From: Deltaproteobacteria bacterium
GTDB lineage: Bacteria > Desulfobacterota > Binatia > UBA9968 > JAJDTQ01
Length of the DNA: 64,000 nt
Direction of reading: 5' to 3'
Assembly (NCBI GenBank): GCA_028818755.1
Contig: JAPPNF010000011.1
Coordinates: 1-64,000 of the forward strand
Shown one piece after another: positions 1 to 21,992 of this stretch. Within the stretch, counting starts at the first letter, position 1, and every line of letters starts with the position of its first letter. The notes below the pieces were generated by a model that was not told the origin of the DNA, searched no databases, and worked only from the letters and a program-made list of their open reading frames with translations. Made by a program: the position numbers and the translations under genes.

Positions 1-54
1 AGAAGTGGGACATTTTCGATTGACACAAATGGGACATTTTCGGCTGACATTGAC
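1..54. repeat. Two direct ~24-nt repeats (TGGGACATTTTCGattGACA / TGGGACATTTTCGgctGACA), possible IS end
   Basis: Units start at about 6 and 30, with 13 identical leading bases and a shared TGACA. The complement (GAAAATGTCCCA) resembles repeated ends of IS21/IS481-type elements. No transposase is visible in the window. Confidence 0.4.
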
Positions 55-2127
55 ATGAGCATTCGCCCGAGTCTCGTGTTGGGCCATCGGGGCGGCGGGA
101 CATGGGTAGTCCGATTGGAGATGCCTTCCTTCCGGGGAGTGGCCGTGTTGAATACGGAAGTCCACTCCTTCCTGAGACGCACGCGGTGCCGCATTAACGG
201 CGGTGCGGACATCAAGCCTGCAGGTTGGTTGCTTGCCGGGAACAGAATGAGTCGTCTTGCATCGTGGCCGGACCCGCACACGCCTCTCGTTCAGTTGCTT
301 CAGTCTCATGAAACCATCGACCATTTCCTGCAGTCGGAATGTCGCTTGAGTCCAGGTCCAGTCTGGCTGTTCAAGATCGCGCGGGATGGAAACGCCCGCG
401 AAGTTATCAGCCGCGTGGTCCGCCCGGGGAGCGAATATCTGGTTGTGACGACGGGGGCGTTGCCCGCAACTCATCCTTTCATACGCGCCTGTAGGGTTGA
501 TTGCGCTGGTGTGGAAGCGGTTAGGCTCGCGATTCCGCTCAGCGTTTCGGCAGACGAGACAGCGTGGCTGGGTCGATTGGGCTTGCAAGTAGCGCGGACG
601 ATCCGTGTGTGGCCGGCCGGACTTCCGGGGCGCGGCTGGGATGGCGAAGGTAATGGCGAATGGTTGACGACAGAATCGCCGTGCTTTGGGATCATGCACG
701 ATCATCCTGTTGGCACCTTCGTCCTGCGGCTCAACGATGGCGCGGAGGCTGAAATCGAGGCCGGCGACCGAGAAGAGCCGGTATTCGTGCGGCTAGCGCC
801 TCTTCCCGCTGGTGTGCACAACCTGACCGTGTCCGCTGCGACACCGGTGTCGGAGGTGGACGCCACGGGCTTCATGGAACTCCACGTCCGGGAACCAGAT
901 CCATGGCACCCGGGTGCCTCGTCCCTTGCATGTCTGATCCCGACCTTGGATCCATACGATCCCGACCTGGACCTGTTCTGGCGGAATGCAGTCGACTTGT
1001 CAGTGGTCGGTCCGGCAGGTCGGACGGTGAACTGTACCGTTTCGCTAGTGGACAAGCGTGGGAACGAAATCTTGACAGAGCGAGTCGGTAGTACCATGGA
1101 ACTGCCTGTCGATCCAGCAACGTGGAGGCAACAGTTCAAGCGATTTCTTGGGAACGAACGACATGCTTGGAGTTATCTTGAGGCCGCCAGTGGTTTCTTG
1201 GAGATTGAGGAGGAGGAACTGGGCCGTTATGTGTTCATGTTCGAGCACAAAGTCCACCCCTTGCGCTGGGTGTTGCGTCGCGACCGCGGTGACATCGTAC
1301 TGAAGTTGATTGATGAGTCTGATGAAGAGGCACCTCTTCAGGTACTCTTTTTCAGTATGCAGCATCCCTTAGTAGAAATACGGCGGGAGTCGGACGAAGC
1401 TTTGCGGCGGATATCTGTTCCCGCCCCAGGTGGTCTCTTGGTGGCGCAACAGGGAATGCACTGTGTGGCAGTGGTTGTCAGTACGGGAAGTAAGGAGGCG
1501 AGGAGGGTCCGAGGGCTCAAGAGCTTCCAGGAACTCGATATTACGCCGACGTTTCTTCCCGAAGCTGGGTTGGCCGACCTGGAGAGTCTGCAACATTGTT
1601 TCCGGGTCTTCGGGTGGTGGACCAATGCCCGCCTCTATGGCCCGCTGGCCACCGTCAGGCAGAAGAAGGTTGTTCAAGGTCTGCTTGGAGAGATTTATGC
1701 CAGGGTCTGCGGCAAAGCATGGAAACTGGCAGAGGACTCGTTCATGAAGGCCCCAAGGTCCGCATCCAGTGTGAGAAAGCTGCGAAATGTGGTGGATTTG
1801 GGCGGTGACTTTTCCCTGGCCCTCTGGCGAGGAAGCTCAAAGATCGAGGATGATGAGCAAAATACGGCAGCGATGACACGATGGTATGTCGATGTAGCCC
1901 AGAGAAACAACGTGAGCGCGAGCCCGCGCCTCTGCGAGTATGCTCTCAGACTGGCGAGTCAGCCGCACCGACTTCTGGAGGTCTACGACCGTGATGAAGT
2001 TCGGAATCTTCTCGAGCAAATCAAGAACAGGCCCACGATCCTACGCGGAGCTCGGTTGCTTGCGCTTTTGAGCGCTAGCAAGGAGGGTGCACGGCCACCG
2101 CACATGCTCCCGGACTGGAAATGGTAA
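55..2127 (+). CDS. Uncharacterised protein, first gene of DUF1998-helicase operon (possible Druantia accessory protein); possibly 5'-truncated
   Basis: 690-aa ORF overlapping the next gene (ATGGTAA). Reading frame is open to the left window edge. No recognised family. Confidence 0.7.
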   Translation: MSIRPSLVLGHRGGGTWVVRLEMPSFRGVAVLNTEVHSFLRRTRCRINGGADIKPAGWLLAGNRMSRLASWPDPHTPLVQLLQSHETIDHFLQSECRLSPGPVWLFKIARDGNAREVISRVVRPGSEYLVVTTGALPATHPFIRACRVDCAGVEAVRLAIPLSVSADETAWLGRLGLQVARTIRVWPAGLPGRGWDGEGNGEWLTTESPCFGIMHDHPVGTFVLRLNDGAEAEIEAGDREEPVFVRLAPLPAGVHNLTVSAATPVSEVDATGFMELHVREPDPWHPGASSLACLIPTLDPYDPDLDLFWRNAVDLSVVGPAGRTVNCTVSLVDKRGNEILTERVGSTMELPVDPATWRQQFKRFLGNERHAWSYLEAASGFLEIEEEELGRYVFMFEHKVHPLRWVLRRDRGDIVLKLIDESDEEAPLQVLFFSMQHPLVEIRRESDEALRRISVPAPGGLLVAQQGMHCVAVVVSTGSKEARRVRGLKSFQELDITPTFLPEAGLADLESLQHCFRVFGWWTNARLYGPLATVRQKKVVQGLLGEIYARVCGKAWKLAEDSFMKAPRSASSVRKLRNVVDLGGDFSLALWRGSSKIEDDEQNTAAMTRWYVDVAQRNNVSASPRLCEYALRLASQPHRLLEVYDRDEVRNLLEQIKNRPTILRGARLLALLSASKEGARPPHMLPDWKW

Positions 2128-3206
2128 TCGACAGGATAGAAGCGGCTGATGTTCTCGCCGACTGCCGGCAGACCCTCGGCTTGTCAGAACCGTCCGAAAC
2201 GGGCCAAGAGCCTCTTGACGAGATATTACTCGCGGCCTTGGTCAGACGCAGCGCAGGAATCCATTGCCCGTGTTCCCGGGCTACTCTGCGATCGTCTCTC
2301 CTGGAAAGCTTGATGCTGCTTTCGGAGGACGAGAAGACACTAGAGGAACGCATCGACGTGGTGATCGAAGGGCTGATCGTCGGCGGGGATCTTCTCGAAC
2401 TCAACGATGTCGCCACCGACGATCCGGATGTCAAGGGAACCTGGGTATTTGCGGCGCCTCCCGGTTTTGTCAGCCGGCGAAGCGGAAGCATCTTCCTGCT
2501 GGGTGTGGTTCCCGACCACGACACGTTCCTGCCGCAGTCACTAATTTCTCGCATCCATCATGAGGGTCTCACGCGCACGATCGTGCCGGAGCGGGACGAA
2601 GATCTCGTCGGCGATTTGCGAGCCCACGGCATGCGAGAGTTATCCGAAAGGGTCTGGCTGAAGGCCCCGACGGCGGAAGAGCCCCATGCCCTGCTCGACC
2701 GGTATACGCGTGAACTAAGGTTGCAGCCGCCGAGTGGCACCATCGTCGATCTCAGAGTTCTGGACCCTGTGAGACCCGTCACCTACTACAAAGGACGATG
2801 GGCAACGGCAGAAAAGCGAACCGGCATCTTCGTCGCACGACGGCCGCAGGAATACGGCGCGGAGTTGTGGTGTCTTGCCGAACTGAAGGCCGGCGCGGTC
2901 GTTCGGATACTTGACCTCCCCCTTTGGAAGACTCGCTGGCGGGGTTGCGACGTCGCGTGGCACTTGCAGATGGCGATAGACTCCTGCCTCGGGACCCCCC
3001 AACGTTATCGGCGGCAGGGTGTGGGCAGCCGAGTGCGTCTGGACTTCTTTTCGCCGCTACCACAATGGGCGGAACGACGGTTGATGATCCTGGGACGTCG
3101 TGCCGATCCGGACCGAAGCCTGATGTCCTATCAACTGCCACGCGCCGAAATCGACAGGGAAGAGAGCTTTCTCAAGAAAGAGCTGTGGCTGGCACCCGAG
3201 GACTAG
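2121..3206 (+). CDS. Uncharacterised protein, second gene of DUF1998-helicase operon
   Basis: 361-aa ORF, 7-nt overlap with the upstream gene, 23 nt upstream of the helicase ATG. N-terminal helical region could be winged-helix-like. Confidence 0.75.
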   Translation: MVIDRIEAADVLADCRQTLGLSEPSETGQEPLDEILLAALVRRSAGIHCPCSRATLRSSLLESLMLLSEDEKTLEERIDVVIEGLIVGGDLLELNDVATDDPDVKGTWVFAAPPGFVSRRSGSIFLLGVVPDHDTFLPQSLISRIHHEGLTRTIVPERDEDLVGDLRAHGMRELSERVWLKAPTAEEPHALLDRYTRELRLQPPSGTIVDLRVLDPVRPVTYYKGRWATAEKRTGIFVARRPQEYGAELWCLAELKAGAVVRILDLPLWKTRWRGCDVAWHLQMAIDSCLGTPQRYRRQGVGSRVRLDFFSPLPQWAERRLMILGRRADPDRSLMSYQLPRAEIDREESFLKKELWLAPED

Positions 3207-3229
3207 CTGGCCCAAGGGTAGCAACGACA

Positions 3230-6200
3230 ATGCTGACAATTCAGGAAACGATCAGGCAACTTCACGATGCCCTCTCCGACTACATCGAGGCGACATATCA
3301 CATCAGTGCGCTTTCCCAGATTTCACAGAGAAAGAGTCTGCTCAACGGACTCGGGAACATTCACCAGATTCCCTACATCGAGTCCACCCCTCGTTACACC
3401 GAAGGGGCAGAGTTCGCCGCGATGAAGGGGCTGTCGCGGGCAGCGCTCGACGCGTACCGGGCCGTGGTCGAACCCGAAGGAGACCTTCCGCGGCTTATTC
3501 ATGATCCGCCGTATACGCATCAGGCCGACGCCGTTCGCAGTTGCCTCGTGGATGGAAGGAATCTTGTCATCATGACAGGGACAGGGTCGGGCAAGACAGA
3601 GGCCTTCTTGCTGCCGATACTCGGCAAGTGTGCTGACGAGGCGCGAAGGCGGCCCGATGCATTCAGTGCGCAGCCAGCCATGCGCGCTCTCATCCTCTAT
3701 CCAATCAACGCGCTCGTCAACGACCAGCTTGGACGACTGCGGTCAATGTTCGGCGATCCGCGTATCGTGAAGCTCTTCAAAGGGTGGGGCGCCCGGCCTC
3801 CACGTTTCGCCAGATACACGAGCAGAACACCGTATCCTGGCGTCCGTACAGTCGCGAAGGATCGGACAAGGCTCACGGCGTTCGGCAGATTCTATGCGGA
3901 CATTCAGCGGCGAGCACAAACGGATGACACCGCGCGAAAATTGCTCCGGAACCTCGAGGAACACGGAAAGTGGCCTGCCAAGCCGGACTTTCTTGAGTGG
4001 TTCGGCGAAGCGGGTAAGCACTGGCAGAATGCCAAAACCGGAGCGTTTCAGAGGGCCGTGACGTTGCCGGACGACTCCGAACTGCTGACACGTCACGAGG
4101 TCCAGGCGGCGCCGCCCGACCTGCTGGTGACCAACTACTCGATGCTCGAATATATGCTGATGCGGCCGATCGAACGTCCGGTGTTCGACAGCACGCGGGA
4201 GTGGCTCGAAGGCAGTCCTGACGAGAAGTTTCTGGTCGTCCTGGACGAAGCCCATCTGTACAGGGGCGCGGCCGGAGCAGAGGTCGGTCTTCTGCTGCGT
4301 CGGCTTCGCGCGCGGCTGGGTATCTCCCACGAGCGTTTTCAGGTCATCTGCGCCACCGCGAGTTTCCAGGATCATGAAAACGCACCCGAGTTCGGAGCCC
4401 AACTGTCCGGCAATCCTGTCGGGAGTTTCCGTCCCATCACAGGCTCGCTGAAGCTCAGGCCGAATGCCGCGGCCGGGACGGATGATGACGCGGCCGTTCT
4501 CGCGTCTGTAGACCTTCAGGGATACTACGAGGCAGCTACGGATCAAGAGAGGCGTGCCGCCGTCCAGCCTATTCTGGACTACCGGTGCGTGGAGGGCGAC
4601 CTTCCTACGGATGTCGCGCTGTATCGCGCGCTGGAAGAATTCGGACCGATGGGACTCCTGATCAATTCCAGTATGACGCAGGCCCTACCGCTTGCGGAAC
4701 TCGGGCCGCAACTTTTTCCTACGGCGCCGTTGGGCCAGGCTGCGGCGGCCGTAACCGCACTGACAACTTTAGGTAGCGTCGCACGAATCCAGGATGACAC
4801 ACCGGGTCTGCTCCCGTGCCGCATTCACAACTTCTTCCGAGGCCTTCCGGGGCTCTGGGTATGCATGGACCCCGATTGCAGCGAAACGGGGGAGCGGGAA
4901 GGCATCTGCGGGAAGATGTACGGCCAGCCACGCGAACGGTGCAACTGCGGCGCACGGGTACTGGAACTGTACACCTGCCGCAACTGCGGCACGGCGTATG
5001 CGAGAGCTTACACGGATGACATAGATGTTCCCTCTGTGCTCTGGGCCGAGCCCGGTCAGCGGCTACGTATAGCTTATGGCGAATCCGAGTCGCTTTTGCC
5101 CTTGGATCTGCTTCTCGAACAACCGACCTTCGACACCGCGGAACCAGCGGACTACGATCTCGAAACCGGACGCCTCAACCCTCCCGTAGTAGGTCCACGT
5201 ACCCGGACCGTGTATATCCGGAGCGAGCGTCTGTCGGACTCTACCAATGCGGACAGCGAGGCATTCATCGAAATCGAAACGCGCGGCCAGTTCGCGCCGT
5301 GTGCGGTCTGCGGGAAGCAAGCTGGATTCGGTCGATCATCTGTGCAGGATCATCAGACCAAGGGGGATCAGCCGTTTCAGGCGCTCGTCGCTCGCCAACT
5401 TCAGATTCAACCACCGGATCCTGAGAAGCAACCCAGCAGCTTCGCGCCGCTGCAAGGGCGCAAGGTGCTGACTTTCGCCGACTCAAGGCAGGTGGCCGCT
5501 CGGCTCGCCCCGAATTTGCAGATGTATTCGGTCCGCGATTCTCTCCGAGCGCTCATAGCGTGGGGTTACCGCCGGCTTCAAGGTGTGTCCACGCTCCTCC
5601 CGCTCCTGAACCTAAGCGACTTGTACTTCGCCGTCTTGCTGGCGTCGAAGATGCTCAACGTCCGACTCCGCCCGGAAACGAAGTCTGGTGAAAGCTTCAA
5701 CGCCGCGCGCCTCGTCGAAAGTGCACCGACGGACGACGACGTGAGTCTCCTCTCGCTGTTGGTGCAATTGCGCAACGAAAGGCCTCCGGAAGCCCTGCTT
5801 GAGGACATCTTCACCACGGTCCAGGATCGGTTCCTGGGATTCGAAGCACTAGGGTTGGCTTCGCTCGGAGAGCAGAGCAGGCATACAGCCGAGATCAAGC
5901 AACTCCCGGGGATCTCAGGCGTTGCTGAGACCCCTGAAGGCAAGGTGGCAATCGCACGCGCTTGGCTTCGGTGCTGGCAGACATCCGGCTTCTGGTTGGG
6001 TTCCATGCCTCCTGATTGGTGGCAGACCAAGATCAGGGGCTCTAAAGGGACATTCCGGGCGATGGATCGCCTTTTTCCGGATGTTGCCGCCCGGCAGACA
6101 TTCCGGAAGTCGTGGTTGCCAACTCTTCTTAACCTCTTCACGGAAGACATGGGGGGCGGGATCCGACGTCTCAGAGGAAGCGAGCTTTCACTCGTTTTTG

Positions 6201-8716
6201 AGGGTATCTGGGTGCACTGTGCACGGTGTAGATCCGTTCACCGCCCAGTCCCCGAACTGTCTAGGTGTCTCGATTGTGGCAGCCCGGACGGGACGGAGAT
6301 AGAGCCGGATTCAGACCCCGTGTTTCTTGCCCGCAAGGGTTTCTACCGCAATCCGGTCACTGAGGTGCTGAAGGAGCCGCCACGCCAACCCATGGCCCTG
6401 ATTGCGGCGGAACATACGGCCCAGCTGAACGCGCCGCAGAACCAGGACACCTTCTCCAAGGCCGAGGAGAACGAGTTGCTCTTTCAGGACATCGATCTGG
6501 GCGAGAACGGGGAGGCCTCGACAGCCGTGGACGTGCTTTCGAGTACGACGACCATGGAGGTCGGCATTGACATTGGAGCGCTTTCCGGCGTTGCGCTCCG
6601 GAACATGCCCCCTGCCCGGGCGAACTATCAGCAGCGCGCGGGGCGGGCGGGCCGTCGCGGCAAAGCCGTCGCGACCGTAGTGGCCTTCGGTAGTGCAGAC
6701 AGCCACGATGAGCACTACTTTTCGGAGCCGGACGGCATGATTCGCGGGTCTGTGGTCGATCCGAGGTTGACTCTCGACAATCCAGAGATTGTCCGGCGGC
6801 ACATCCGCGCTTTTCTCTTGCAGAGCTATCATCAGGATAGGATCCCGGAAGTGGATCCGGAACAACGCCACGATTTGTTTTCGGTCCTCGGAACGGTCTC
6901 CGAGTTCCGCAGCGGCACGTCGGTGTTGAACCGCAACGATTTCGCGGCATGGCTCGGTGAACGCGAAGAGTCACTGCAGAAACTTGTCCTCTCTTGGGTA
7001 CCGCGGGAGTTGGCGGAGGCTGACCGGGACACGCTCATTCGGAAAATGAAGGACGATTGCCTTGAGGCTATCGACGACGCGATCCGGCCGGACCCTGGAG
7101 AAGTCGGCGAGGACGATGAAGAAGAAAGTGAGATTCCATCCGAAGCGGAAGAGGAACGGCCTCAGCGGGCATCAAGCCCGGCTAAGCTATTGGACCGGCT
7201 TCTCTACTGCGGGAAGCTGCCGCGCTACGCCTTTCCTACGGACGTGGCGACGTTTCACGTCTTCGACACTAACAGGTCGACACGTTTCAGGCCGGTCATG
7301 CGCTTTGCCCCGACTCAGAGCCTGCCGGTGGCGCTTACGCAATACGCGCCCGGGAAACAGGTGTGGATCTCGGGCAAGTGTTACACTTCAGGTGCGATCT
7401 ATTCGGTGATGTCAGAAGACCGGTTCCGCGCTTGGGAAACAAGGCGCATCTACATGGAATGTCGCGAGTGTGGTTTCGTGGGGACCTTTCCGGTCGGTGA
7501 GGTCGCCCGTGGCGACACGCGAGACTGCGACGCGTGCGGAGGCGAGGAAACATTCGGCCCCGGGCGCTACTGGATGCGGCCGCCGGGTTTCGCCCATCCG
7601 TTGGATGTGGACGAAGTCACATCACCGGACGATATGCCGGAAACGAGCTACGCGACGCGCGCAAAACTCACCATGGGAACGCCCGGCGAGGGGGAGAACT
7701 GGATCACCGTCAACGATCGCATCCGTGTTCTGAGGGATCGCCAACATCTTCTGGTGTCGAACACAGGGCCGAGGAAAGAGGGCTATACTTACTGCACGAA
7801 GTGCGGACGCATCGAATCCAGTGCTAGCCCTGTTTCGGTACTAGCGAGTGAACATCGTAAGCCGTACCCTGACGATGATGCCAAGATGTGCGATGGCCAC
7901 GCGACCCAGCACCTTGTTCTTGGGACGGACTTCGTCACGGATATTGCGTTGTTCTCGCTACGCGTGGCTTCGCCGGTGCGGTTGAGCCCGGGCCATTCCT
8001 CGACAGCCGTCGCGCTGAGGACGGTCAGCGAAGCGCTGGGCAAGGCGGCGTGTCAGTTGTTGGAGATTGAGCCGGATGAACTCTTGGCGGAGTTCCGGCC
8101 TGCGCTGACGCAAGCCGGGAAGCGCGGTCTTGAGGCAGAGATTTTCCTCTACGATACCTTGCCTGGCGGGGCCGGTTTTTCCAGCCAAGTGGCCGGTCGC
8201 GGTCGGGATTTGATCCAGCGGGCGCTGTGGCTCATGGAGCACTGTCCAGAGGACTGTGATGCCTCGTGCTACCGGTGTCTGCGAAGCTTCAAGAACAGGT
8301 TCGAACATAGCCTACTGGATCGCCACGTGGGTGCGGCCTTGCTCCGGTATCTTCTTACGGGGGAAGACCCGCAGTTCAGTCCTGACCGACTCCAGAGAGC
8401 GACAACGCTCCTGTACAATGACCTTGTGCGTCAGGGAGACGAAGGGGTCGCCTTCGAGCGCGACGTGACAGTGGAAACCGAGTTGGGAACCCTGACGGCG
8501 CCGATCCTCGCACGGACCGTTGCCGGGCTCGTGTACATCGTTGTCCTTTCGGGTCCGCTGACTAACGATCAACCCGAAGATCCTGCCATCGCTGACTACC
8601 GTGCGGGTGGCGGCGCCCTTCCAGTGATCGTGGAAAATGAACTGATGATTCGCGGCAATCTTCCCGCCGCCACGCGTAACGTACAGAAAGCGATCGGTGC
8701 CGGCACGGTCCAGTAG
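3230..8716 (+). CDS. Large DEAD/DEAH-box helicase with DUF1998-like C-terminus (DruE/DrmA/MrfA-type superfamily)
   Basis: Walker A MTGTGSGKTEAF; DEAH in VVLDEAHLYRGAAGAE; motif VI QQRAGRAGRRG; Cys clusters (CNCGARVLELYTCRNCGTAYARAY, CRECGFVG...CDACGG, CTKCGR); C-terminal LYDTLPGGAGFSSQV...CDASCYRCLRSFKNRFEHSLLDR typical of DUF1998. Start chosen at MLTIQETIRQL, not the longer 2924 ORF. Confidence 0.9.
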   Translation: MLTIQETIRQLHDALSDYIEATYHISALSQISQRKSLLNGLGNIHQIPYIESTPRYTEGAEFAAMKGLSRAALDAYRAVVEPEGDLPRLIHDPPYTHQADAVRSCLVDGRNLVIMTGTGSGKTEAFLLPILGKCADEARRRPDAFSAQPAMRALILYPINALVNDQLGRLRSMFGDPRIVKLFKGWGARPPRFARYTSRTPYPGVRTVAKDRTRLTAFGRFYADIQRRAQTDDTARKLLRNLEEHGKWPAKPDFLEWFGEAGKHWQNAKTGAFQRAVTLPDDSELLTRHEVQAAPPDLLVTNYSMLEYMLMRPIERPVFDSTREWLEGSPDEKFLVVLDEAHLYRGAAGAEVGLLLRRLRARLGISHERFQVICATASFQDHENAPEFGAQLSGNPVGSFRPITGSLKLRPNAAAGTDDDAAVLASVDLQGYYEAATDQERRAAVQPILDYRCVEGDLPTDVALYRALEEFGPMGLLINSSMTQALPLAELGPQLFPTAPLGQAAAAVTALTTLGSVARIQDDTPGLLPCRIHNFFRGLPGLWVCMDPDCSETGEREGICGKMYGQPRERCNCGARVLELYTCRNCGTAYARAYTDDIDVPSVLWAEPGQRLRIAYGESESLLPLDLLLEQPTFDTAEPADYDLETGRLNPPVVGPRTRTVYIRSERLSDSTNADSEAFIEIETRGQFAPCAVCGKQAGFGRSSVQDHQTKGDQPFQALVARQLQIQPPDPEKQPSSFAPLQGRKVLTFADSRQVAARLAPNLQMYSVRDSLRALIAWGYRRLQGVSTLLPLLNLSDLYFAVLLASKMLNVRLRPETKSGESFNAARLVESAPTDDDVSLLSLLVQLRNERPPEALLEDIFTTVQDRFLGFEALGLASLGEQSRHTAEIKQLPGISGVAETPEGKVAIARAWLRCWQTSGFWLGSMPPDWWQTKIRGSKGTFRAMDRLFPDVAARQTFRKSWLPTLLNLFTEDMGGGIRRLRGSELSLVFEGIWVHCARCRSVHRPVPELSRCLDCGSPDGTEIEPDSDPVFLARKGFYRNPVTEVLKEPPRQPMALIAAEHTAQLNAPQNQDTFSKAEENELLFQDIDLGENGEASTAVDVLSSTTTMEVGIDIGALSGVALRNMPPARANYQQRAGRAGRRGKAVATVVAFGSADSHDEHYFSEPDGMIRGSVVDPRLTLDNPEIVRRHIRAFLLQSYHQDRIPEVDPEQRHDLFSVLGTVSEFRSGTSVLNRNDFAAWLGEREESLQKLVLSWVPRELAEADRDTLIRKMKDDCLEAIDDAIRPDPGEVGEDDEEESEIPSEAEEERPQRASSPAKLLDRLLYCGKLPRYAFPTDVATFHVFDTNRSTRFRPVMRFAPTQSLPVALTQYAPGKQVWISGKCYTSGAIYSVMSEDRFRAWETRRIYMECRECGFVGTFPVGEVARGDTRDCDACGGEETFGPGRYWMRPPGFAHPLDVDEVTSPDDMPETSYATRAKLTMGTPGEGENWITVNDRIRVLRDRQHLLVSNTGPRKEGYTYCTKCGRIESSASPVSVLASEHRKPYPDDDAKMCDGHATQHLVLGTDFVTDIALFSLRVASPVRLSPGHSSTAVALRTVSEALGKAACQLLEIEPDELLAEFRPALTQAGKRGLEAEIFLYDTLPGGAGFSSQVAGRGRDLIQRALWLMEHCPEDCDASCYRCLRSFKNRFEHSLLDRHVGAALLRYLLTGEDPQFSPDRLQRATTLLYNDLVRQGDEGVAFERDVTVETELGTLTAPILARTVAGLVYIVVLSGPLTNDQPEDPAIADYRAGGGALPVIVENELMIRGNLPAATRNVQKAIGAGTVQ

Positions 8717-8969
8717 TTAGGTCGAGGAGCCCGACGGACATGAAAGCCTGTCGAAGTGCTGGTGAGGTGCCATGTGAGCGGCCGGAGGGCTATCGACGCC
8801 GGGCCACCATAGACGGGGAGCCGCGCCATCAACAAGTCCGCCATCCGCATGAAGTCGGACCTAGTCGCTGAGCCGGCGGGCCGTAAGGAAACACCACTAA
8901 CTAGTGTGTGAGGAAAAGGGAGCGGGTCACTGGGTTTGCGGGTGCTGGCCGAGGGCACGGAGTTGCCTC
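8717..8969 (+). other. Non-coding interval with structured-RNA look (possible group II intron 5' fragment)
   Basis: Contains GTGAGGTGCCATGTGAGCGGCCGGAGGGCTATCGACGCCGGG and GTCGCTGAGCCGGCGGGCCGTAAGGAAACACCACTAACTAGTGTGTGAGG. Resembles bacterial group II intron domain I sequence from memory only. No RT ORF. Confidence 0.3.
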
Positions 8970-9839
8970 ATGCGGAATGCAGAGAAAGATAGCGTTGGAG
9001 CTGTTTTCCAGAAGGAAGAAACCGTCCGGTATGTCTCAATCTGGACCAATAAGGAAGGCGGGGAATTCTTAGTCTCATTGCGAGTGGTACCGGCAGGTCG
9101 TGAGGGTAAGACTGTATACGGACGGACTTTACGTCATGGAGAAGAAGTAGACCCGGATGAAGGAGTACTCGTAAGAGCGGGCGAGCGGTTTGTCTTCAGA
9201 GAGGGAGATCTGACAATTGACGCCCGCGCCGTCGATGAACTCTACAACCCTGAGGAGCGGGGCGGGTACAGGCCGATCTCGAACACCGTTTGGACTTGGC
9301 ACCACTTCACTTCGGAACGACGGAGTTTCTTCTTGTTCATCTTCGCGTTAGCGAAGCGACTCGATGCAACTCACACGAGTTGGGTTGCGGCGCTTGAAAT
9401 CCGAGACCGAGCGCGCGAGGAAAAGGGCATTTCACGACGACGATTACACTTGAGCGAACTGGCGGCGGCTGAGGCGACCGTCGTTCCGCTCGGGCGATGC
9501 TATTCGATGATCCGGACTCTCGTCCGACAACACTGTCCGGAATTGCACATGCCTGAAACGGTAGCGCGAACCTTTGGTGCGGTATGTGAGATGAGAAACG
9601 CGTTTGAACACATAGATGAACGAGCAGAAGGAAAGCTAAAGGTAGGGAGAAAGACGGTAATTGATCCCGACGCGTTCACGATCTTCGATCAACCGGACTT
9701 CATCGGGTCCGGTATATTGCGGTATAAGGCGTTTCAGTTGAATTTCGAATCAGACGTGCTTGCAGCCCTTATCGAGTGTCGGGGGTTGGTGTTAGCGGCG
9801 ATCAGAGCGCGGGTCCGGGCAAGAGCACGACTTGACTAG
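8970..9839 (+). CDS. HEPN-motif protein (candidate RNase/toxin)
   Basis: ~289 aa from ATG 8970. C-terminal CEMRNAFEHIDER carries RNxxxH, the canonical HEPN motif, in a helical region. Confidence 0.6.
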   Translation: MRNAEKDSVGAVFQKEETVRYVSIWTNKEGGEFLVSLRVVPAGREGKTVYGRTLRHGEEVDPDEGVLVRAGERFVFREGDLTIDARAVDELYNPEERGGYRPISNTVWTWHHFTSERRSFFLFIFALAKRLDATHTSWVAALEIRDRAREEKGISRRRLHLSELAAAEATVVPLGRCYSMIRTLVRQHCPELHMPETVARTFGAVCEMRNAFEHIDERAEGKLKVGRKTVIDPDAFTIFDQPDFIGSGILRYKAFQLNFESDVLAALIECRGLVLAAIRARVRARARLD

Positions 9840-9964
9840 ATGACGAGCAAGCCGCCTATGGGTGCTTAATTTGTGATCCGGACTGAACCTTTTGCAAGAC
9901 GTACGCTAGACGACGAAGTTTTGGGCCCGCCCACGCCGGATTCCGAAGGAACCGGCGCGAGCGT

Positions 9965-9993
9965 TTGACATCACCCACCTTCTCCATTACAAA
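9965..9993 (+). promoter_or_regulatory. Putative sigma70-type promoter for rplU
   Basis: TTGACA (9965-9970), 17-nt spacer, TACAAA (9988-9993), 11 nt before the rplU ATG. Confidence 0.5.
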
Positions 9994-10004
9994 GTCATGC
10001 AACT

Positions 10005-10328
10005 ATGGGACGTTATGCGGTCGTAAAGACGGGCGGCAAGCAATACCGGGTGGCCGAGGGCGAACTGGTCGATGTTGAGCGCCTGAGCGGGGAAGTCGGC
10101 GCCACGGTGACCCTTGGTGAGGTGTTGCTGGTGAGCGGCGGCGAGGACGAGCAGGCCCGGATCGGCACCCCCACGGTGGACCAGGCCCAGGTCACCGCCG
10201 AGATCGTCGAGCAGGGGCTCGACAAGAAGATCATCGTCTTCAAGAAGAAGCGGCGGAAGGGCTACAAGCGCAAACAGGGCCACCGCCAGCAGCAGACCAC
10301 CCTTAGAATCGTCGAAATCCAGGCGTAA
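10005..10328 (+). CDS. rplU: 50S ribosomal protein L21
   Basis: [16 protein letters not shown]...[23 protein letters not shown]; followed by rpmA and obg. Confidence 0.98.
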
Positions 10329-10341
10329 GGCGGAAGAACCG

Positions 10342-10596
10342 ATGGCGCACAAGAAATCAGGCGGAAGCTCGCGCAACGGCCGCGACAGTCACGGACAGAG
10401 GCGCGGCGTCAAGCGTTACGGCGGACAGCACGTCAAGGCGGGCAACATCCTGGTCCGCCAGTTGGGCACCAAGATCCACCCGGGCAAGAACGTCGGCATG
10501 GGGCGGGACTACACCCTGTTCGCCCTGGTCGAGGGCACGGTGGAATATCAACGCTGGGGCCGGTCGCGCAAGCGCGTCGCCATCGTTCCTGCCTGA
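10342..10596 (+). CDS. rpmA: 50S ribosomal protein L27
   Basis: [48 protein letters not shown]. Confidence 0.98.
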
Positions 10597-10634
10597 GAAC
10601 CTCCCGCGCGTGCGAACGCACGCCCGGGGAGTTC
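10597..10634 (+). terminator. Strong stem-loop after rpmA (attenuator/processing site or terminator lacking T-tract)
   Basis: GAACCTCCCGCGCGTGCG-AACG-CACGCCCGGGGAGTTC inverted repeat directly after the rpmA stop; no T-run. Confidence 0.45.
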
Positions 10635-10714
10635 GATCCTCGCGGCCCGGCCGCATCCCATCTCGTATCCCTGTCAACTTTCTCTGGTAACCGCTGTGCG
10701 GCTGATCGCGGTAG

Positions 10715-11803
<1,089 letters not shown>

Positions 11804-11817
11804 AGACACGAAACCTC

Positions 11818-12948
11818 ATGGTTGACCTGAGAGGCAAATACGTTCACGGCGCGAAACGGGTGGTTGTGAAGATCGGGAGCCGCGTCCTTTCTTCCGAGCG
11901 CGGTCTGCACTCGCGGCGTATCGGGAGGCTGGTGCGCGAGCTGGCGGCGCTCCACGATCAAGGGAAGAAGCTCGTGGTGGTCAGCTCCGGCGCTATCGCG
12001 TCGGGCATCAGCCGGCTGGGCCTTGCCAAGCGCCCCACCGACCTGCCGCAAGAGCAGGCGCTGGCGGCGGTCGGGCAGATCCGGCTGATGGCGCTGTACG
12101 AGAACTCCTTCGCCGGCTATGGGAAGCACGTGGGGCAGGTGCTGCTGACCCACGAAGACCTGGCCAACCGCAAGCGCTACCTCAACGCCAAGCACACGCT
12201 CAAGACCCTCCTGGACTGGGACATCATCCCCATCGTCAACGAAAACGATACCGTTGCGGTGGAGGAGGTGAAGTTCGGCGACAACGACCAGTTGTCCGCG
12301 CTGGTGGCCACACTCATGGAGATGGACCTGCTGGTGATTCTGAGCGACGTCGACGGGGTGTATGACCGCGATCCCAGGTCCAGCGACGAGGCTCGGCTGA
12401 TGCCCGTGGTGACCGATCTCGCCACGGCCAAGAAGGTGGCCCAGGACGCGCAACCGTCGGATCTGGGGCGGGGCGGCATGTACTCGAAGCTCTGTGCCGC
12501 GGAGCAGGCGAGCCAGGCCGGCATTCCCACCGTCATCGCCAGCGGCCGGGAGCGGGAGGTCCTGAACGGCTTGTTCGAAAGCGGCCGCGAGTCGGGTACC
12601 CTGGTGTTGCCCGAGGAGAACCGCCTCACCAGCCGCAAGCACTGGATCCTCTACAATCTCAAGCCCTCCGGTGCGGTGATGGTGGACAACGGCGCCTGCG
12701 CTGCGGTGACAGCCAGGGGCAAGAGCCTGCTGCCGTCGGGAGTGCGGGAGATCCGCGGCTCCTTCGGGGCCGGCGAGTGCGTGAGTTGCGTCGACGACAG
12801 CGGCCGCGAGTTCGCCCGCGGCCTGGTGAACTACAGCTCGCAGGAGCTGCACAAGATAAAGGGATCGCACTCGGGCAAGATCGAGGCCATCCTGGGGTAC
12901 AAGGCCTACGACGAGATCATCCACCGGGACGATCTCGTGCTGGTATAG
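11818..12948 (+). CDS. proB: Glutamate 5-kinase (with PUA domain)
   Basis: VVKIGSRVLSSE, SSGAIASGI, NENDTVAVEEVKFGDNDQLSALVA, GRGGMYSKL; C-terminal PUA-like region. Confidence 0.97.
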   Translation: MVDLRGKYVHGAKRVVVKIGSRVLSSERGLHSRRIGRLVRELAALHDQGKKLVVVSSGAIASGISRLGLAKRPTDLPQEQALAAVGQIRLMALYENSFAGYGKHVGQVLLTHEDLANRKRYLNAKHTLKTLLDWDIIPIVNENDTVAVEEVKFGDNDQLSALVATLMEMDLLVILSDVDGVYDRDPRSSDEARLMPVVTDLATAKKVAQDAQPSDLGRGGMYSKLCAAEQASQAGIPTVIASGREREVLNGLFESGRESGTLVLPEENRLTSRKHWILYNLKPSGAVMVDNGACAAVTARGKSLLPSGVREIRGSFGAGECVSCVDDSGREFARGLVNYSSQELHKIKGSHSGKIEAILGYKAYDEIIHRDDLVLV

Positions 12949-13050
12949 TTCAGCGTATGTGGTCCAAGAGAATTTCCGCAGATCGACTGCTCAAGGCCTG
13001 CGAAAAGGCCAACTTGGGTAGTGTTCTCGGGAGATAAGAAGAGGAAGCCG

Positions 13051-14025
13051 ATGCAGGAACGTGCTCCCAGGAACCGGACTCTGTCGTGCACCGACGAGGA
13101 AGTGATGGCGTTGTCGCGTGACATTATGCACGTGAAATCGACCATTGCCCTGTCGGACATCGAAGGGCGGCTCTTGTCAGGAGACATCTTTGAGTTGGCG
13201 AGATATCTCCCGTCTGCGTTTGTCGATCTCCTCATTCTGGATCCACCGTACAACCTTTCCAAGAACTACGACGGCAACCTGTTCAAACGGAAAGAACAAG
13301 ACGAATATCAGTCTTGGTTTGACGGTGTTGTCGACTTGTTGGATCCGATGCTGAAGCCGGATTCGACGATTTACGTGTGCGCCGATTGGAAGACGTCTAC
13401 ACTCGTGTTGCCGATCCTGGAATCCAGATTCCACGTCCGTAACAGGATTACCTGGGAACGGGAGAAGGGGCGCGGCGCCAAAATGAATTGGAAGAACAAC
13501 ACAGAGGATATCTGGTTTTGTACAAAATCGGATCGGTATTATTTTGATGTTGACGCGGTCAAGCTGAAACGTCGGGTCCTCGCGCCATACAGGGTCGATG
13601 GACGGCCGAAGGATTGGGTTCAAGAAGAAGATGGCAACTACCGCCTTACCTATCCCTCCAATATCTGGACTGATGTGACGGTCCCGTTCTGGTCCATGTC
13701 GGAGAACACAGATCACCCTACTCAGAAACCGGAGAAGTTGATGGCGAAACTGATCCTTGCCAGTTCGAAAAAGGGAGGTTTCGTGTTCGACCCCTTCCTC
13801 GGCAGCGGAACGAGTGTGGTCGTAGCGGCGAAGCTGCAAAGACGCTGGTGTGGAGTGGACATCAATACTCGTTACTTGTGCTTGGCGCACAAGCGCGTGA
13901 CCGCTGCGAAAGAGGACTCGACTATCCAGGGCTATGAGAAGGGCGTGTTCTGGGAGAGAAACTCGACGGCCGGCCAGCGCACCCAGAACAAGTTGAACGA
14001 ACGTCAGGAAACCCTGTTCTCATGA
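13051..14025 (+). CDS. DNA methyltransferase (N6-adenine/N4-cytosine, beta-type order), Type II R-M
   Basis: LLILDPPYNLSKNYDG (motif IV) precedes FDPFLGSGTSVVVAAKLQRRWCGVDIN (motif I). ORF is open from 13021; ATG 13051 is likelier. Confidence 0.9.
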   Translation: MQERAPRNRTLSCTDEEVMALSRDIMHVKSTIALSDIEGRLLSGDIFELARYLPSAFVDLLILDPPYNLSKNYDGNLFKRKEQDEYQSWFDGVVDLLDPMLKPDSTIYVCADWKTSTLVLPILESRFHVRNRITWEREKGRGAKMNWKNNTEDIWFCTKSDRYYFDVDAVKLKRRVLAPYRVDGRPKDWVQEEDGNYRLTYPSNIWTDVTVPFWSMSENTDHPTQKPEKLMAKLILASSKKGGFVFDPFLGSGTSVVVAAKLQRRWCGVDINTRYLCLAHKRVTAAKEDSTIQGYEKGVFWERNSTAGQRTQNKLNERQETLFS

Positions 14026-14690
14026 GGTCCCGTTTTTACTACGAGGGGCACCATCAAGCGGTGGCATCGGCAGTCAGAGACTACGTCAATTCATCTCAGG
14101 ACTTTCTCTCGCCGCACACCGCCGGAAGCCCGAGAGCGGCGGGCGACGCGATCGAAGCGCTTGTTGCAGAGAAGTTTGGCGGTTTTCTGGGCGATTGGTG
14201 CACCGAGTATTCGAGAGAGTTCGCTCGTCGCGCCATGGCGGACATGGCCTTCACCGACAAGGAGGGCATCTACTCTGTAGTGGATGTCAAGACACACAGA
14301 GAAGACGCCCGATTCAGCATGCCCAACCTCACGTCTGTGGATCGGCTGGCCCGATTCTACGAGTCAGATGCCAATGTCTTCTCACTTCTGATGATCAAGT
14401 ATGCGATTGAAGACACCAGTGTCACGGTGTCGGAGGTGGTGTTCTGTCCCATTGAATTCTTGGATTGGTCGTGTCTGACTGTCGGCGCGCTTGGTTGGGG
14501 CCAGATCCAGATAGCGAACTCCAACAACATTCGCGTGATCGAGCGATATTCGAGGAAGGAATGGATGTTGCAGTTATGTGATGCATTGCTGACGTTCTAT
14601 CCGAAGGAAATTGGCAAGATACAAGACAGGATCGAGCGTTTTAGTGATGTGCGGAAGTACTGGGAAGCGAAGGAAGACTTATGGCGCTGA
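14022..14690 (+). CDS. Putative Type II restriction endonuclease (PD-(D/E)XK-like)
   Basis: ATGA overlap with the methyltransferase stop. DMAFTDKEGIYSVVDVKTH fits a D-x(n)-DxK nuclease core. Confidence 0.75.
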   Translation: MRSRFYYEGHHQAVASAVRDYVNSSQDFLSPHTAGSPRAAGDAIEALVAEKFGGFLGDWCTEYSREFARRAMADMAFTDKEGIYSVVDVKTHREDARFSMPNLTSVDRLARFYESDANVFSLLMIKYAIEDTSVTVSEVVFCPIEFLDWSCLTVGALGWGQIQIANSNNIRVIERYSRKEWMLQLCDALLTFYPKEIGKIQDRIERFSDVRKYWEAKEDLWR

Positions 14691-14700
14691 CGACGTCAGG

Positions 14701-15969
14701 ATGGGAGTCGCCATGGCAGTAGCCGAGGAAGCAATCGCCATCGGGCAAAGGGCCAGGGACGCGGCCGGGGCGCTGGCCAATCTTTCCACGGACCTCAAGA
14801 ACGAGGCCCTTGTGGCCATGGCGGACGGCATCGAGGCGCGGCAGGACTTCCTGCTCGCCGAGAACGCGAAGGACGTCGCCGGAGCGAAAAAAAAGGGCAT
14901 TTCCAAGGCGGTGATCGACCGCCTCACACTGAATCCCCAACGGGTGGCGGCCATGGCCGCGGCCATTCGGGACATCGTCGGCCTGCCCGACCCCGTGCGG
15001 CAGGTGACCCGGCAGTGGCAGCGCCCTAACGGCCTCGAGGTGGGTAAGATGCGCATCCCGCTGGGGGTCATCACGATCATCTACGAGGCCCGGCCGAACG
15101 TCACCGCGGACGCCGCGTCGCTGTGCATCAAGTCGGGCAACGCCGTCATCCTCAGGGGCAGCAGCGATGCAAAGCATTCCAATCAGGCCATCGGCGACGT
15201 ATTGCGGGAGGCGTGCGCCGAGGCCGGCGCGCCTGAAGACGCCGTGCAGGTGGTAGCGTCCACCGACCGGGCGATGATCAACGAGCTGCTCAAGCTCGAG
15301 GAGTACGTGGACCTGGTCATCCCGCGCGGCGGCGAGGAACTGATCCGTTTCGTCGCGGCCAACTCCCTGGTGCCGGTGGTCAAGCACTACAAGGGCGTGT
15401 GCCACGTCTACGTCGACAGCGACGCCGACCTGGACATGGCGGAACGGATTTCCCTCAACGCCAAGGTCCAGCGACCGTCGGTGTGCAATGCCATGGAGAC
15501 GCTGCTGGTGCACGAGGCGGTGGCGCCGCGGTTCCTGCCCGATGTGATCGGCAAGCTCAGGGAGAGCGGCGTGGAGGTGCGCGGTTGCGACAAGACCCGG
15601 GCGCTGGTCGGCGGAATCCCGGCGGCCAGCGAGGCGGACTGGCACGAGGAATACCTGGACCTGGTGCTGGCGGTGCGGGTGGTGGCGGACATGGACGAAG
15701 CCATCGAGCACATCCGGCAATACGGTTCGGATCACACCGAGACCATCGTGACCGCCGACCGCGGCAAGGCCGAGGAGTTCATCGCGCGGGTCAACTCGTC
15801 GGCGGTGCTGGTCAACGCCTCCACGCGCTTCAACGACGGCGGCGAGCTCGGCCTCGGCGCCGAGATCGGCATCAGCACCAGCAAGATCCACGCCTTCGGC
15901 CCCATGGGGCTGGAAGAGCTCACGAGCACCAAGTTCTTCGTCTACGGCGATGGACAGGTCCGCACCTAG
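14701..15969 (+). CDS. proA: Glutamate-5-semialdehyde dehydrogenase
   Basis: PLGVITIIYEARPNVTADAASLCIKSGNAVILRG, LVPVVKHYKGVCHVYVD, GAEIGISTSKIHAFGPMGLEELTSTKF. Confidence 0.97.
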   Translation: MGVAMAVAEEAIAIGQRARDAAGALANLSTDLKNEALVAMADGIEARQDFLLAENAKDVAGAKKKGISKAVIDRLTLNPQRVAAMAAAIRDIVGLPDPVRQVTRQWQRPNGLEVGKMRIPLGVITIIYEARPNVTADAASLCIKSGNAVILRGSSDAKHSNQAIGDVLREACAEAGAPEDAVQVVASTDRAMINELLKLEEYVDLVIPRGGEELIRFVAANSLVPVVKHYKGVCHVYVDSDADLDMAERISLNAKVQRPSVCNAMETLLVHEAVAPRFLPDVIGKLRESGVEVRGCDKTRALVGGIPAASEADWHEEYLDLVLAVRVVADMDEAIEHIRQYGSDHTETIVTADRGKAEEFIARVNSSAVLVNASTRFNDGGELGLGAEIGISTSKIHAFGPMGLEELTSTKFFVYGDGQVRT

Positions 15970-15979
15970 TCGTGTTTTG

Positions 15980-16012
15980 CCCTCTCCCTCTGGGAGAGGG
16001 TCAGGGTGAGGG
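15980..16012 (+). repeat. CCCTCTCCCTCTGGGAGAGGG-TCAGGGTGAGGG intergenic repeat
   Basis: Self-complementary core; same motif at 29666-29752 and 49522-49555. Confidence 0.8.
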
Positions 16013-16019
16013 CTTCCCC

Positions 16020-16697
16020 ATGAGACTCGGCCTGTTCGGCGGCACATTCGACCCGGTCCACCTCGGCCACCTGAGGAGCGCCGAGGAGGTGAAAGAGGAG
16101 TACGCGCTGGACGAGGTCAGCTTCGTGCCGTGCGGCGTGCCGCCGCACCGGAGCGGCAGGCCGGGAGCGGCGCCGCAGCACCGGCTGGAGATGGTGCGGC
16201 TTGCGGTGGCGGACAGGCCGGGACTCGGCGTTTCCGATATCGAGGTCGCCCGCCCGGGCGCCTCCTATTCCATCGACACCGTGCGCCATTTCCTGACCAC
16301 GCTCGGGCCGGGCGACGACCTGTTCCTGATCCTGGGCCTCGACGCCTTCCTGCTCATCGGTTCCTGGAAGGATTGGCGCGAGCTGTTGTCCCTCGCGCAC
16401 GTCATCGTGACCTCGCGGCCGGGCTTCGGGGACGAGCTGCCTTACGAGAAAATTCCCGTTGTCGTGCGGGAGGCGTTTTGTTATCATGCGTTTCGCTTCG
16501 AAGGGCCGGTCCGGTCCGGCTTCCGGAACGAGCTCGGCAAGGAGATCCTGTTCAAGCGCTTGACGGATGTCTCCGTGTCCGCCTCGGCCATCCGGGAACT
16601 CCTTGGAAAGGGGAAATCGATTCGCGGCTTGGTTCCCTCGGAAGTGCAACGCTACGTGGAAGATCAAAACCTCTACAACGAGCCGCCGGAGTCCTAG
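16020..16697 (+). CDS. nadD: Nicotinate-nucleotide adenylyltransferase
   Basis: MRLGLFGGTFDPVHLGHLRSAEEV; C-terminal SASAIRELLGKGKSIRGLVPSEVQRYV. Confidence 0.96.
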   Translation: MRLGLFGGTFDPVHLGHLRSAEEVKEEYALDEVSFVPCGVPPHRSGRPGAAPQHRLEMVRLAVADRPGLGVSDIEVARPGASYSIDTVRHFLTTLGPGDDLFLILGLDAFLLIGSWKDWRELLSLAHVIVTSRPGFGDELPYEKIPVVVREAFCYHAFRFEGPVRSGFRNELGKEILFKRLTDVSVSASAIRELLGKGKSIRGLVPSEVQRYVEDQNLYNEPPES

Positions 16698-17167
16698 TGT
16701 CTGAAACGCCGGCGCTCGACGCCAAGGAGAAGGCGCTGCTGCTCTGCGGCTTCGCCCTTGAGAAGAAGGCCCAGGATCTCGCCCTCCTGGAGGTCGGCGA
16801 GCTTACCACCATCGCCGACTATTTCATCATCTGCTCCGGTCGTTCCGACCGGCACGTCCAAAGCATCGCGGAAGGGATCAAGGAGGACGGCCGCCCACGC
16901 GGCCTGCGCCCGCTGTCCAGCGAGGGCATCGCCCGGGGCCAATGGGTGCTCATGGACTTCTCCGACGTCCTGATCCACATCTTCTACGAACCCGTGCGCC
17001 GCTTCTACGACCTCGACGGCCTCTGGGCCGGCGCCGCCACGGTGGAGTTGCCGGAGCCGTACGCGAGCGTCGCCAAGCAGTTCACCGGTGATGACGCGCC
17101 CCAGGAGCTCTGGCCGGCGGCGGAAGGCGGTTTCGATTCCCGCTACATCGGAAAGCCGGGGTGTTGA
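16697..17167 (+). CDS. rsfS: Ribosomal silencing factor RsfS
   Basis: GTG start overlapping the nadD stop; ADYFIICSGRSDRHVQSIAEGI, WVLMDFSDVLIHIFYEPVRRFYDLDGLW. Confidence 0.95.
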   Translation: MSETPALDAKEKALLLCGFALEKKAQDLALLEVGELTTIADYFIICSGRSDRHVQSIAEGIKEDGRPRGLRPLSSEGIARGQWVLMDFSDVLIHIFYEPVRRFYDLDGLWAGAATVELPEPYASVAKQFTGDDAPQELWPAAEGGFDSRYIGKPGC

Positions 17168-17250
17168 AGACAGTAAGAATTTCGCGGATCGAGGCACTGG
17201 GCGAAAAGGCAATTGACACCGAGCATTCCATAAGGTAGGGTTCCACCAGC

Positions 17251-17445
17251 ATGGAATTTATCGAACTCGCCAAGCTCGCTGGTGCCGTCGCCGTTCCGGT
17301 GGTCGCCGTAGCCGGGCTTTTCTACCAGATGATGGCGCACGCCTTGAAGCCGTTCCGCGACGACATCGCCGAACTTCGCAAGGAAGTTCACCAGATCGAC
17401 GTTCGACTTGCCAGGGTCGAAGAGGCCGTGAAAAACCCCGCCTAG
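17251..17445 (+). CDS. Small membrane/coiled-coil protein
   Basis: 64 aa, hydrophobic AGAVAVPVVAVAGLFY then charged helix DDIAELRKEVHQIDVRLARVEEAV. Confidence 0.5.
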   Translation: MEFIELAKLAGAVAVPVVAVAGLFYQMMAHALKPFRDDIAELRKEVHQIDVRLARVEEAVKNPA

Positions 17446-17465
17446 TGATGCACAAGAAGTTAGGG

Positions 17466-17540
17466 TGGTGATCCCAACGGGACTCGAACCCGTGTTTCTG
17501 GCGTGAGAGGCCAGCGTCCTAACCGCTAGACGATGGGACC
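17466..17540 (-). tRNA. tRNA-Glu (CTC)
   Basis: Reverse complement GGTCCCATCGTCTAGCGGTTAGGACGCTGGCCTCTCACGCCAG...GGTTCGAGTCCCGTTGGGATCACCA folds as a cloverleaf; anticodon loop CTCTCAC. Confidence 0.96.
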
Positions 17541-17541
17541 G

Positions 17542-17617
17542 TGGCTGAGGAGGTAGGACTCGAACCTACAATCGCCTGATCCAGAGTCAGGTGGCTTACC
17601 AATTAGCCGACTCCTCA
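17542..17617 (-). tRNA. tRNA-Gln (CTG)
   Basis: Reverse complement TGAGGAGTCGGCTAATTGGTAAGCCACCTGACTCTGGATCAGG...GGTTCGAGTCCTACCTCCTCAGCCA; anticodon loop CTCTGGA. Confidence 0.96.
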
Positions 17618-17698
17618 ATGTAATTTCCAAGGATAAATCAATCGGTCCTGGGCGTCAAGGTGGGAATCGGTGACGCTCCGTGTCAGGCTAGTCCGGGC

Positions 17699-18673: not shown

Positions 18674-18725
18674 CCGTGCTCGAGTAGGTCAAGGACAAGG
18701 CCCGGGCTTTCCCCGGAAGTGTCAC

Positions 18726-20159: not shown

Positions 20160-20323
20160 TGTATTCCAGTTTTTCGAGAGCGGACCGCCAGGGTCGGGTG
20201 CGTCCGACCGTCTCATGGCTGTGTGATCTGTGAGTGTATTTGTTACGGGCGCGCTCCGGCCTTGTCAAATTGACCGGCTTGCCACCCCGTCGATGTGGGC
20301 GGTTATTCGCGCGAACCGAAAAT

Positions 20324-20352
20324 TTGACCCGGTCCTCCCGGTGTGCCATATT
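20324..20352 (+). promoter_or_regulatory. Putative sigma70-like promoter for tRNA-Ser
   Basis: TTGACC (20324-20329), 17-nt spacer, CATATT (20347-20352), ~20 nt before the tRNA 5' end. Confidence 0.4.
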
Positions 20353-20372
20353 TCCGGTTCGTCAGCTGCCTC

Positions 20373-20463
20373 GGAGAGATGGCCGAGCGGTCGAAGGCGC
20401 ACGCCTGCTAAGCGTGTGTACCCCAAAAGGGTACCGAGGGTTCGAATCCCTCTCTCTCCGCCA
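20373..20463 (+). tRNA. tRNA-Ser (GCT)
   Basis: GGAGAGATGGCCGAGCGGTCGAAGGCGCACGCCTGCTAAGCGTG with long variable arm and ...GGTTCGAATCCCTCTCTCTCCGCCA; anticodon GCT. Confidence 0.96.
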
Positions 20464-20500
20464 CCCTTCCTTCAACAGCTTTTCTAGACAGTTTACGAGG

Positions 20501-20701: not shown

Positions 20702-20734
20702 GAGTAATTCGTCGTGGTGCGTGTGGGCTGAACG

Positions 20735-21238: not shown

Positions 21239-21374
21239 CCTTGCATCTTGTAGTTTCCTCAACAGGTTTGAAGCAGAGAGGCTTCCGCAACGTATTCGCA
21301 TTCGCCGGATTCTCGGGGCAAAAACCAAGAGTGATGGTTGATGTACGTAACCCGGACTGCTTGAGGACACGAAC

Positions 21375-21974: not shown

Positions 21975-21992
21975 AGGGTACGGTGCCCCTCT

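What the first reader, a model, noticed from the sequence alone, without database searches (positions are those of the whole stretch)
55..8716. Three-gene DUF1998 large-helicase operon, candidate Druantia-like defense system with unrecognised partners
Two tightly coupled uncharacterised genes (690 aa, 361 aa; ATGGTAA overlap) precede a ~1,828-aa helicase with DEAH, QQRAGRAGRRG, several Cys clusters and a DUF1998-like C-terminus. Very large DUF1998 helicases are the hallmark of Druantia (DruE); DUF1998 helicases also occur in DISARM (DrmA) and Dpd systems. No DISARM methylase or PLD gene is adjacent, and I cannot recognise either partner. It could be a known Druantia subtype with divergent partners or a new subtype.
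Basis: partly seen in the sequence, partly recalled or inferred. Interest (0 to 1): 0.78.

Follow-up and report, generated by a model that had tools for sequence, protein, structure and literature searches.

The report
IS-broken Druantia type I variant operon
This is the back half of a four-gene anti-phage operon (Druantia type I, with an undescribed large protein in place of two usual parts) that a mobile element has cut in two in this genome; the undescribed protein matters because its relatives also sit beside the helicases of a second defence system, DISARM.

Summary
Gene 3 (3230-8716) is full-length DruE1 (1994 bits) and gene 2 (2121-3206) is DruD1 (2e-132). Gene 1 is not a 690-aa gene: the window starts at a contig end, bases 1-55 are the end of a mobile element, and the apparent ATG straddles that junction. 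The rest of gene 1 and an intact druA lie at the end of contig C16, cut by the element's other end. Counting a 4-bp target duplication (TGAG) once restores a 960-aa frame. The operon was therefore druA-G1-druD-druE. G1 has no PADLOC, Pfam or NCBIfam match and no detectable similarity to DruB, DruC or DruH, yet it sits between DruA and DruD-DruE in 29 of 29 related loci with room to see it. Its model (helical, Ig-like beta, helical) has the layout published for DruH, the Druantia III sensor. G1 relatives also occur beside DrmA/DrmB in a rhizobial DISARM-like locus. DruA is about as similar to E. coli's (59-73% in most loci) as within this group, while DruE is only 33%, so DruA appears to have been swapped between two cores. 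Verdict: new variant of Druantia type I, probably inactivated here.

The parts
1..55 (.). Right end of a mobile element (repeated GGGACATTTTCG motifs, terminus TGACA), at the contig start; interrupts gene 1. IS21-like by appearance only.
   Evidence: Identical 55 bases at C10:1-55; opposite end closes contigs C16 and C51; target repeats TGAG for C16|C164 and CCGAT for C51|C10, none for other pairings
56..2127 (+). 3' part of G1 (codons 271 onward of a 960-codon gene): end of hinge, Ig-like beta domains and C-terminal helical domain. The 5' part is at C16:57177 to about 57991, outside the window.
   Evidence: Joined flanks give one 960-aa frame that aligns end to end with relatives; profile match on both contigs; no family match
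2121..3206 (+). druD (361 aa), overlapping G1 by ATGGTAA
   Evidence: PADLOC DruD1 2e-132 over the whole length; AlphaFold model pLDDT 90
3230..8716 (+). druE (1828 aa), YprA-family SF2 helicase of Druantia type I
   Evidence: PADLOC DruE1 1993.5 bits over residues 2-1822
3575..3598 (+). DruE Walker A (TGTGSGKT, residues 116-123; K122)
   Evidence: Invariant in 28 aligned DruE proteins including E. coli
4244..4255 (+). DruE DEAH motif (residues 339-342)
   Evidence: Invariant
6629..6661 (+). DruE motif VI QQRAGRAGRRG (residues 1134-1144)
   Evidence: Conserved across the alignment
8027..8281 (+). DruE MrfA-type Zn-binding domain (MZB, formerly DUF1998)
   Evidence: Pfam PF09369, 9.7e-13, residues 1600-1684

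Best explanation
This is the distal part of a Druantia type I-class anti-phage operon, druA-G1-druD-druE, in which one 960-aa protein (G1) takes the place of DruB and DruC. Most likely mechanism: G1, built of a helical N-domain, a disordered hinge, a chain of Ig-like beta domains and a helical C-domain, senses infection and acts as scaffold. It licenses DruE, a YprA-type SF2 helicase, to translocate on and process phage replication DNA; DruA and DruD assist on DNA. Shown here: gene identities, order, conservation, the split by an insertion, the absence of detectable DruB/DruC similarity, and the layout of the G1 model. Inferred: defence activity, G1 as sensor, DruE as DNA-processing effector, and any cleavage being done by partners in trans (relatives carry a Cas4-like nuclease or a helicase gene downstream). 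In this genome the operon is probably inactive, because a mobile element interrupts G1 at its hinge and separates druA from druD-druE.
For: DruE1 and DruD1 full-length matches; DruA and the G1 N-terminus on C16; flanks with a TGAG repeat rejoin to a 960-aa frame; DruA-G1-DruD-DruE order in 29 of 29 loci with room; helicase motifs invariant; G1 model layout and Ig-like fold hits resemble the published DruH sensor (PMC13192584); downstream nuclease or helicase genes in relatives.
Against: No activity was measured for this operon or any four-gene relative. G1 shows no sequence similarity to DruH, Ig-like folds are common, and the model's domain arrangement is unsure (pTM 0.42). The element's body is not in the assembly, so the split rests on contig ends, terminal repeats and target duplications.
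Confidence: 0.6

Rival explanations
1. The operon is intact in the living population; the split is an assembly break at a repeat and G1 is not interrupted in most cells.
For: The element's body is not in the assembly, and contigs end at 55-base overlaps, as assemblers leave them. The genome is fragmented (187 contigs) and may mix strains.
Against: Two sites (C16|C164, C51|C10) carry the same two termini with their own short target duplications, and no other pairing does. Such termini inside a gene mean an element was inserted there in the assembled strain.
Confidence: 0.1
2. G1 is simply a fused, highly diverged DruB-DruC, so this is ordinary Druantia type I.
For: G1 occupies the DruB-DruC position between DruA and DruD, and DruD itself is only faintly related to E. 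coli DruD, so the core diverges fast.
Against: No signal to DruB or DruC by BLAST, HMM or hhalign or by PADLOC models, whereas DruE keeps 33% and DruA 59-73%. DruC draws coiled-coil matches; G1 is largely Ig-like beta.
Confidence: 0.2
3. The helicase is a housekeeping MrfA/YprA repair helicase with chance neighbours.
For: It shares the DUF1998/MZB domain and YprA-family architecture.
Against: DruE1 1994 bits, TIGR03817 only 115 bits against a cut-off of 874, partners conserved, patchy presence in its class.
Confidence: 0.01

Closest known systems
Druantia type I (E. coli druABCDE, L039)
   Same: DruA 59% identical to this genome's; DruE 34% over full length, motifs shared; DruD in the same place; same order druA...druD-druE
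   Different: DruB (548 aa) and DruC (627 aa) absent; one unrelated 960-aa protein G1 instead; DruD barely detectable as related
Four-gene locus of Nitrosococcus watsonii pNWAT01 (L005) and Consotaella salsifontis (L007)
   Same: Same four genes in the same order; DruE 66-71%, DruD 50-61%, G1 about 44-49%
   Different: Intact; only G1 is not annotated beyond 'hypothetical protein' in L005; L007 has a helicase gene downstream
Druantia type III (DruH-DruE)
   Same: YprA-type DruE; a large partner with terminal helical regions around Ig-like domains (PMC13192584)
   Different: No sequence similarity between G1 and DruH; type III has no DruA or DruD; its DruE has a predicted active PLD nuclease
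DISARM-like loci of Rhizobium pTA1_2 (L073) and Azospirillum (L072)
   Same: Carry a G1-family protein (HMM E about 2e-35) beside a YprA-type helicase
   Different: In L073 the helicase is DrmA with a separate DrmB; an SNF2 helicase follows G1 and UvrD and NERD genes are present; no DruA or DruD annotated

Membership tests
Druantia type I | DruE of subtype 1 | tested here: met
   PDLC00013 1993.5 bits, residues 2-1822
Druantia type I | DruD | tested here: met
   PADLOC DruD1 2e-132; only a faint profile link to E. coli DruD
Druantia type I | DruA (DUF4338) | tested here: met
   Intact on contig C16, Pfam DruA 7.1e-82; 59% to E. coli DruA
Druantia type I | DruB | tested here: not met
   No match of G1 to DruB by BLAST, HMM, hhalign or PADLOC; no other gene in the operon
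Druantia type I | DruC | tested here: not met
   Same tests; DruC profile finds nothing in this genome
Druantia type I | Protects against phages | not testable with these tools
   Needs cloning and phage challenge
Druantia type III | DruH beside DruE | tested here: not met
   G1 has no PADLOC DruH match and no profile similarity to a DruH; DruE3 models score well below DruE1
Druantia type II / IV | DruF, DruG, DruM or DruL beside DruE | tested here: not met
   No such match for genes 1 and 2
DISARM | Separate DrmA and DrmB with methylase and PLD nuclease | tested here: not met
   DrmA 46 bits and DrmB 19 bits only, as parts of DruE; no methylase or PLD gene in the operon
MrfA/YprA housekeeping helicase | Best match to MrfA/YprA, no conserved defence partners | tested here: not met
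   TIGR03817 115 bits against a cut-off of 874; solved YprA 68 bits; conserved partners

The most novel reading that the evidence does not exclude
G1 is an undescribed sensor/scaffold family shared by two defence classes (a Druantia type I variant and DISARM-like DrmA/DrmB loci). It is a functional counterpart of DruH, and Druantia type I is a mosaic in which DruA and the sensor are exchangeable modules on YprA-type helicase cores.
Probability: 0.4. Interest if true: 0.68.

Novelty: new variant of a known kind. Interest (0 to 1): 0.45.

Why it matters
Druantia type I is annotated by five parts, two of which (DruB, DruC) are missing in this group. A 960-aa partner that no library searched here recognises is as constant in these loci as the helicase. 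Tools that look for DruB and DruC may call such systems partial. If G1 is the infection sensor, then Druantia I, Druantia III and some DISARM-like loci would share one design (exchangeable Ig-like sensor, common YprA-type helicase), and that can be tested by gene deletion and module swaps in a laboratory strain.

Tried and rejected
G1 as a DruB-DruC fusion: HMM, hhalign and BLAST all negative. G1 as a DruH homolog: sequence negative. DruC family search over 395 genomes gave only what look like coiled-coil chance matches. PDB profile searches with G1 and DruD: nothing. DruD fold search: nothing significant; one low-ranked PadR-like winged-helix match over 80 columns. Identifying the element by its 55-base end in plasmids: no match. 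Viral contigs for E. coli DruD and DruC: none. 16S rRNA of the genome: not found. Tree topology alone does not prove the DruA exchange (AU p 0.06-0.16), although in the DruE tree grouping E. coli and P. putida with N. watsonii is rejected (p 0.0135); that grouping was named after seeing the DruA tree. The identity contrast is the stronger argument. PADLOC model PDLC00008, tried by guess, is another DruD model and found nothing. Published supplementary tables could not be read, so whether this variant is listed there is unknown; PADLOC's DruD1 models that fit this DruD so well suggest that loci of this kind were already counted as type I when the models were built.

Full report
Observation. The start of gene 1 is wrong. 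The window is C164:1-64000, a contig start, and bases 1-55 recur at C10:1-55. The opposite terminus (TGTAGCGGAAAATTG...CCCACATTG) ends contigs C16 and C51. Only C16|C164 (TGAG) and C51|C10 (CCGAT) share short direct repeats at the junction. These are two insertions of one mobile element whose body was not assembled. Its repeated terminal motifs resemble IS21-family ends (own knowledge, not verified). The last C16 genes are recJ, then druA, then the first 271 codons of gene 1; druA and gene 1 overlap by ATGA. Joining the flanks and counting TGAG once gives a single 960-aa frame that aligns end to end with relatives. The ATG at 55 is made by the junction.

Identity. Gene 3 is DruE1 over its whole length (1993.5 bits). 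Gene 2 is DruD1 (2e-132). Gene 1 (here G1) matches nothing in PADLOC, Pfam or NCBIfam, and full-length relatives match nothing in PADLOC or Pfam (one E=3 chance hit). Of 32 related loci found through DruD, every one with room has G1 (29 of 29), DruA (29 of 29) and DruE (31 of 31), from Pseudomonadota to Acidobacteriota, Armatimonadota, Gemmatimonadota, Myxococcota and Planctomycetota. In Nitrosococcus pNWAT01 the order is DruA, G1 (955 aa), DruD, DruE.

Comparison with the type system. E. coli type I is druA (404 aa), druB (548), druC (627), druD (347), druE (1836). G1 is not detectably related to DruB or DruC: BLAST, HMM and hhalign are all negative, while PADLOC's own DruB1 and DruC1 models find the E. 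coli proteins easily. DruD is only faintly related to E. coli DruD (hhalign P about 1e-3, colinear over 232 columns). DruE is 33-34% identical between the groups. DruA, by contrast, is mostly 57-73% identical between the groups (42-55% for the divergent DruAs of L028, L029, L033 and L036; about 25% for the long-DruA loci), as much as within the group. In the DruA tree the canonical pair (E. coli, P. putida) sits next to N. watsonii (97/97). In the DruE tree that grouping is rejected (AU 0.0135) and the canonical pair lies outside. Topology tests on DruA alone are not decisive (p 0.06-0.16). I read this as DruA having moved between two helicase cores. Five loci point the same way: the same G1-DruD-DruE core is headed by an unlike, longer DruA (about 680-740 aa), preceded by a GHKL-type ATPase gene (cut at the contig edge in L038).

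Modules around the core. Behind DruE, six loci (L037 cut short) carry a Cas4-like PD-(D/E)XK nuclease (weak PADLOC DruK match). Fourteen mostly alphaproteobacterial loci carry a UvrD-like helicase whose N-terminus has an IEVKS motif that I read as nuclease-like. The window has neither in the 12 kb that follow. Type I DruE is reported to end in an inactivated Vsr domain (PMC12458937), so any cutting may come from such partners.

G1 beyond this core. In a Leisingera and a Paracoccus plasmid, ATPase, long DruA, DruE, a NERD-type helicase gene (typed in Leisingera) and a DruD-like gene face an SNF2 helicase plus a G1 relative (HMM 1.5e-37 and 5.7e-20). In a Rhizobium plasmid a G1 relative plus an SNF2 helicase stand beside DrmA (682 bits), DrmB (282 bits), UvrD and NERD genes, and an Azospirillum plasmid has a similar set of annotated genes. 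So G1 is a recurrent partner of YprA-family helicases in both Druantia and DISARM-like loci. I found no account of it in the papers I could read; their supplementary tables were not available.

How it probably works. The G1 model (of the L007 relative; pLDDT 78, pTM 0.42: domains good, their arrangement unsure) is helical 5-243, disordered 242-273, beta 279-757, helical 764-941. Fold hits are Ig-like and macroglobulin-type sandwiches and phage tail proteins, with low TM-scores. DruH of Druantia III has terminal helical regions around Ig-like domains and is the likely sensor, with DruE acting on ssDNA-containing replication DNA (PMC13192584). By analogy G1 is the likely infection sensor or scaffold and DruE the DNA-processing motor. 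This step is inferred. The insertion falls at codon 271, in the hinge, so it cuts G1 between domains and separates druA from druD-druE. The host's defence is therefore probably off unless the element supplies a promoter and the pieces suffice. Among 148 genomes of its class only this one has G1, and a same-genus genome keeps just a 72% DruE fragment at a contig end, as expected for a laterally moving, often decaying system.

Verdict. New variant of a known kind: Druantia type I class with DruB and DruC replaced by G1, split by a mobile element here. It is not filed as a canonical type I member, because two defining parts were tested and not met. The general point worth follow-up is G1, an unmodelled component of two helicase-based defence classes.

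Noticed in passing
window 13021-14025: N6/N4 DNA methyltransferase gene (Pfam N6_N4_Mtase, PADLOC type II MTase, 9e-59) 4 kb past druE, separated from it by housekeeping genes (obgE, proB); possible restriction-modification locus.
   Followed up: partly
window 8904-9839: 311-aa ORF directly behind druE with no Pfam or PADLOC match; it may be cargo of the same insertion.
   Followed up: partly
G000:C51 end (L065) and C10 start (L066): Second copy of the same mobile element, with a 5-bp target repeat CCGAT, inserted in what looks like another transposase gene.
   Followed up: partly
window 17466-17617: Adjacent tRNA-Glu and tRNA-Gln genes on the minus strand, with tRNA-Ser at 20373 and tRNA-Arg at 21162.
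   Followed up: no
L006 (Sinorhizobium medicae pMl4) 8380-18740: Another decayed four-gene-type locus: G1 in two frames, no DruA, and DruE broken by an IS3 element.
   Followed up: partly
L042 5910-18688: A contig catalogued as viral (IMG/VR) carries the whole druA-G1-druD-druE operon plus the downstream helicase gene; not checked whether it is really viral.
   Followed up: partly
L073 (Rhizobium pTA1_2) 6838-25356: DISARM-like DrmA/DrmB locus without an annotated PLD nuclease, with UvrD, NERD-UvrD, a G1 relative and an SNF2 helicase, next to a dcm/vsr/MvaI-type restriction system.
   Followed up: partly
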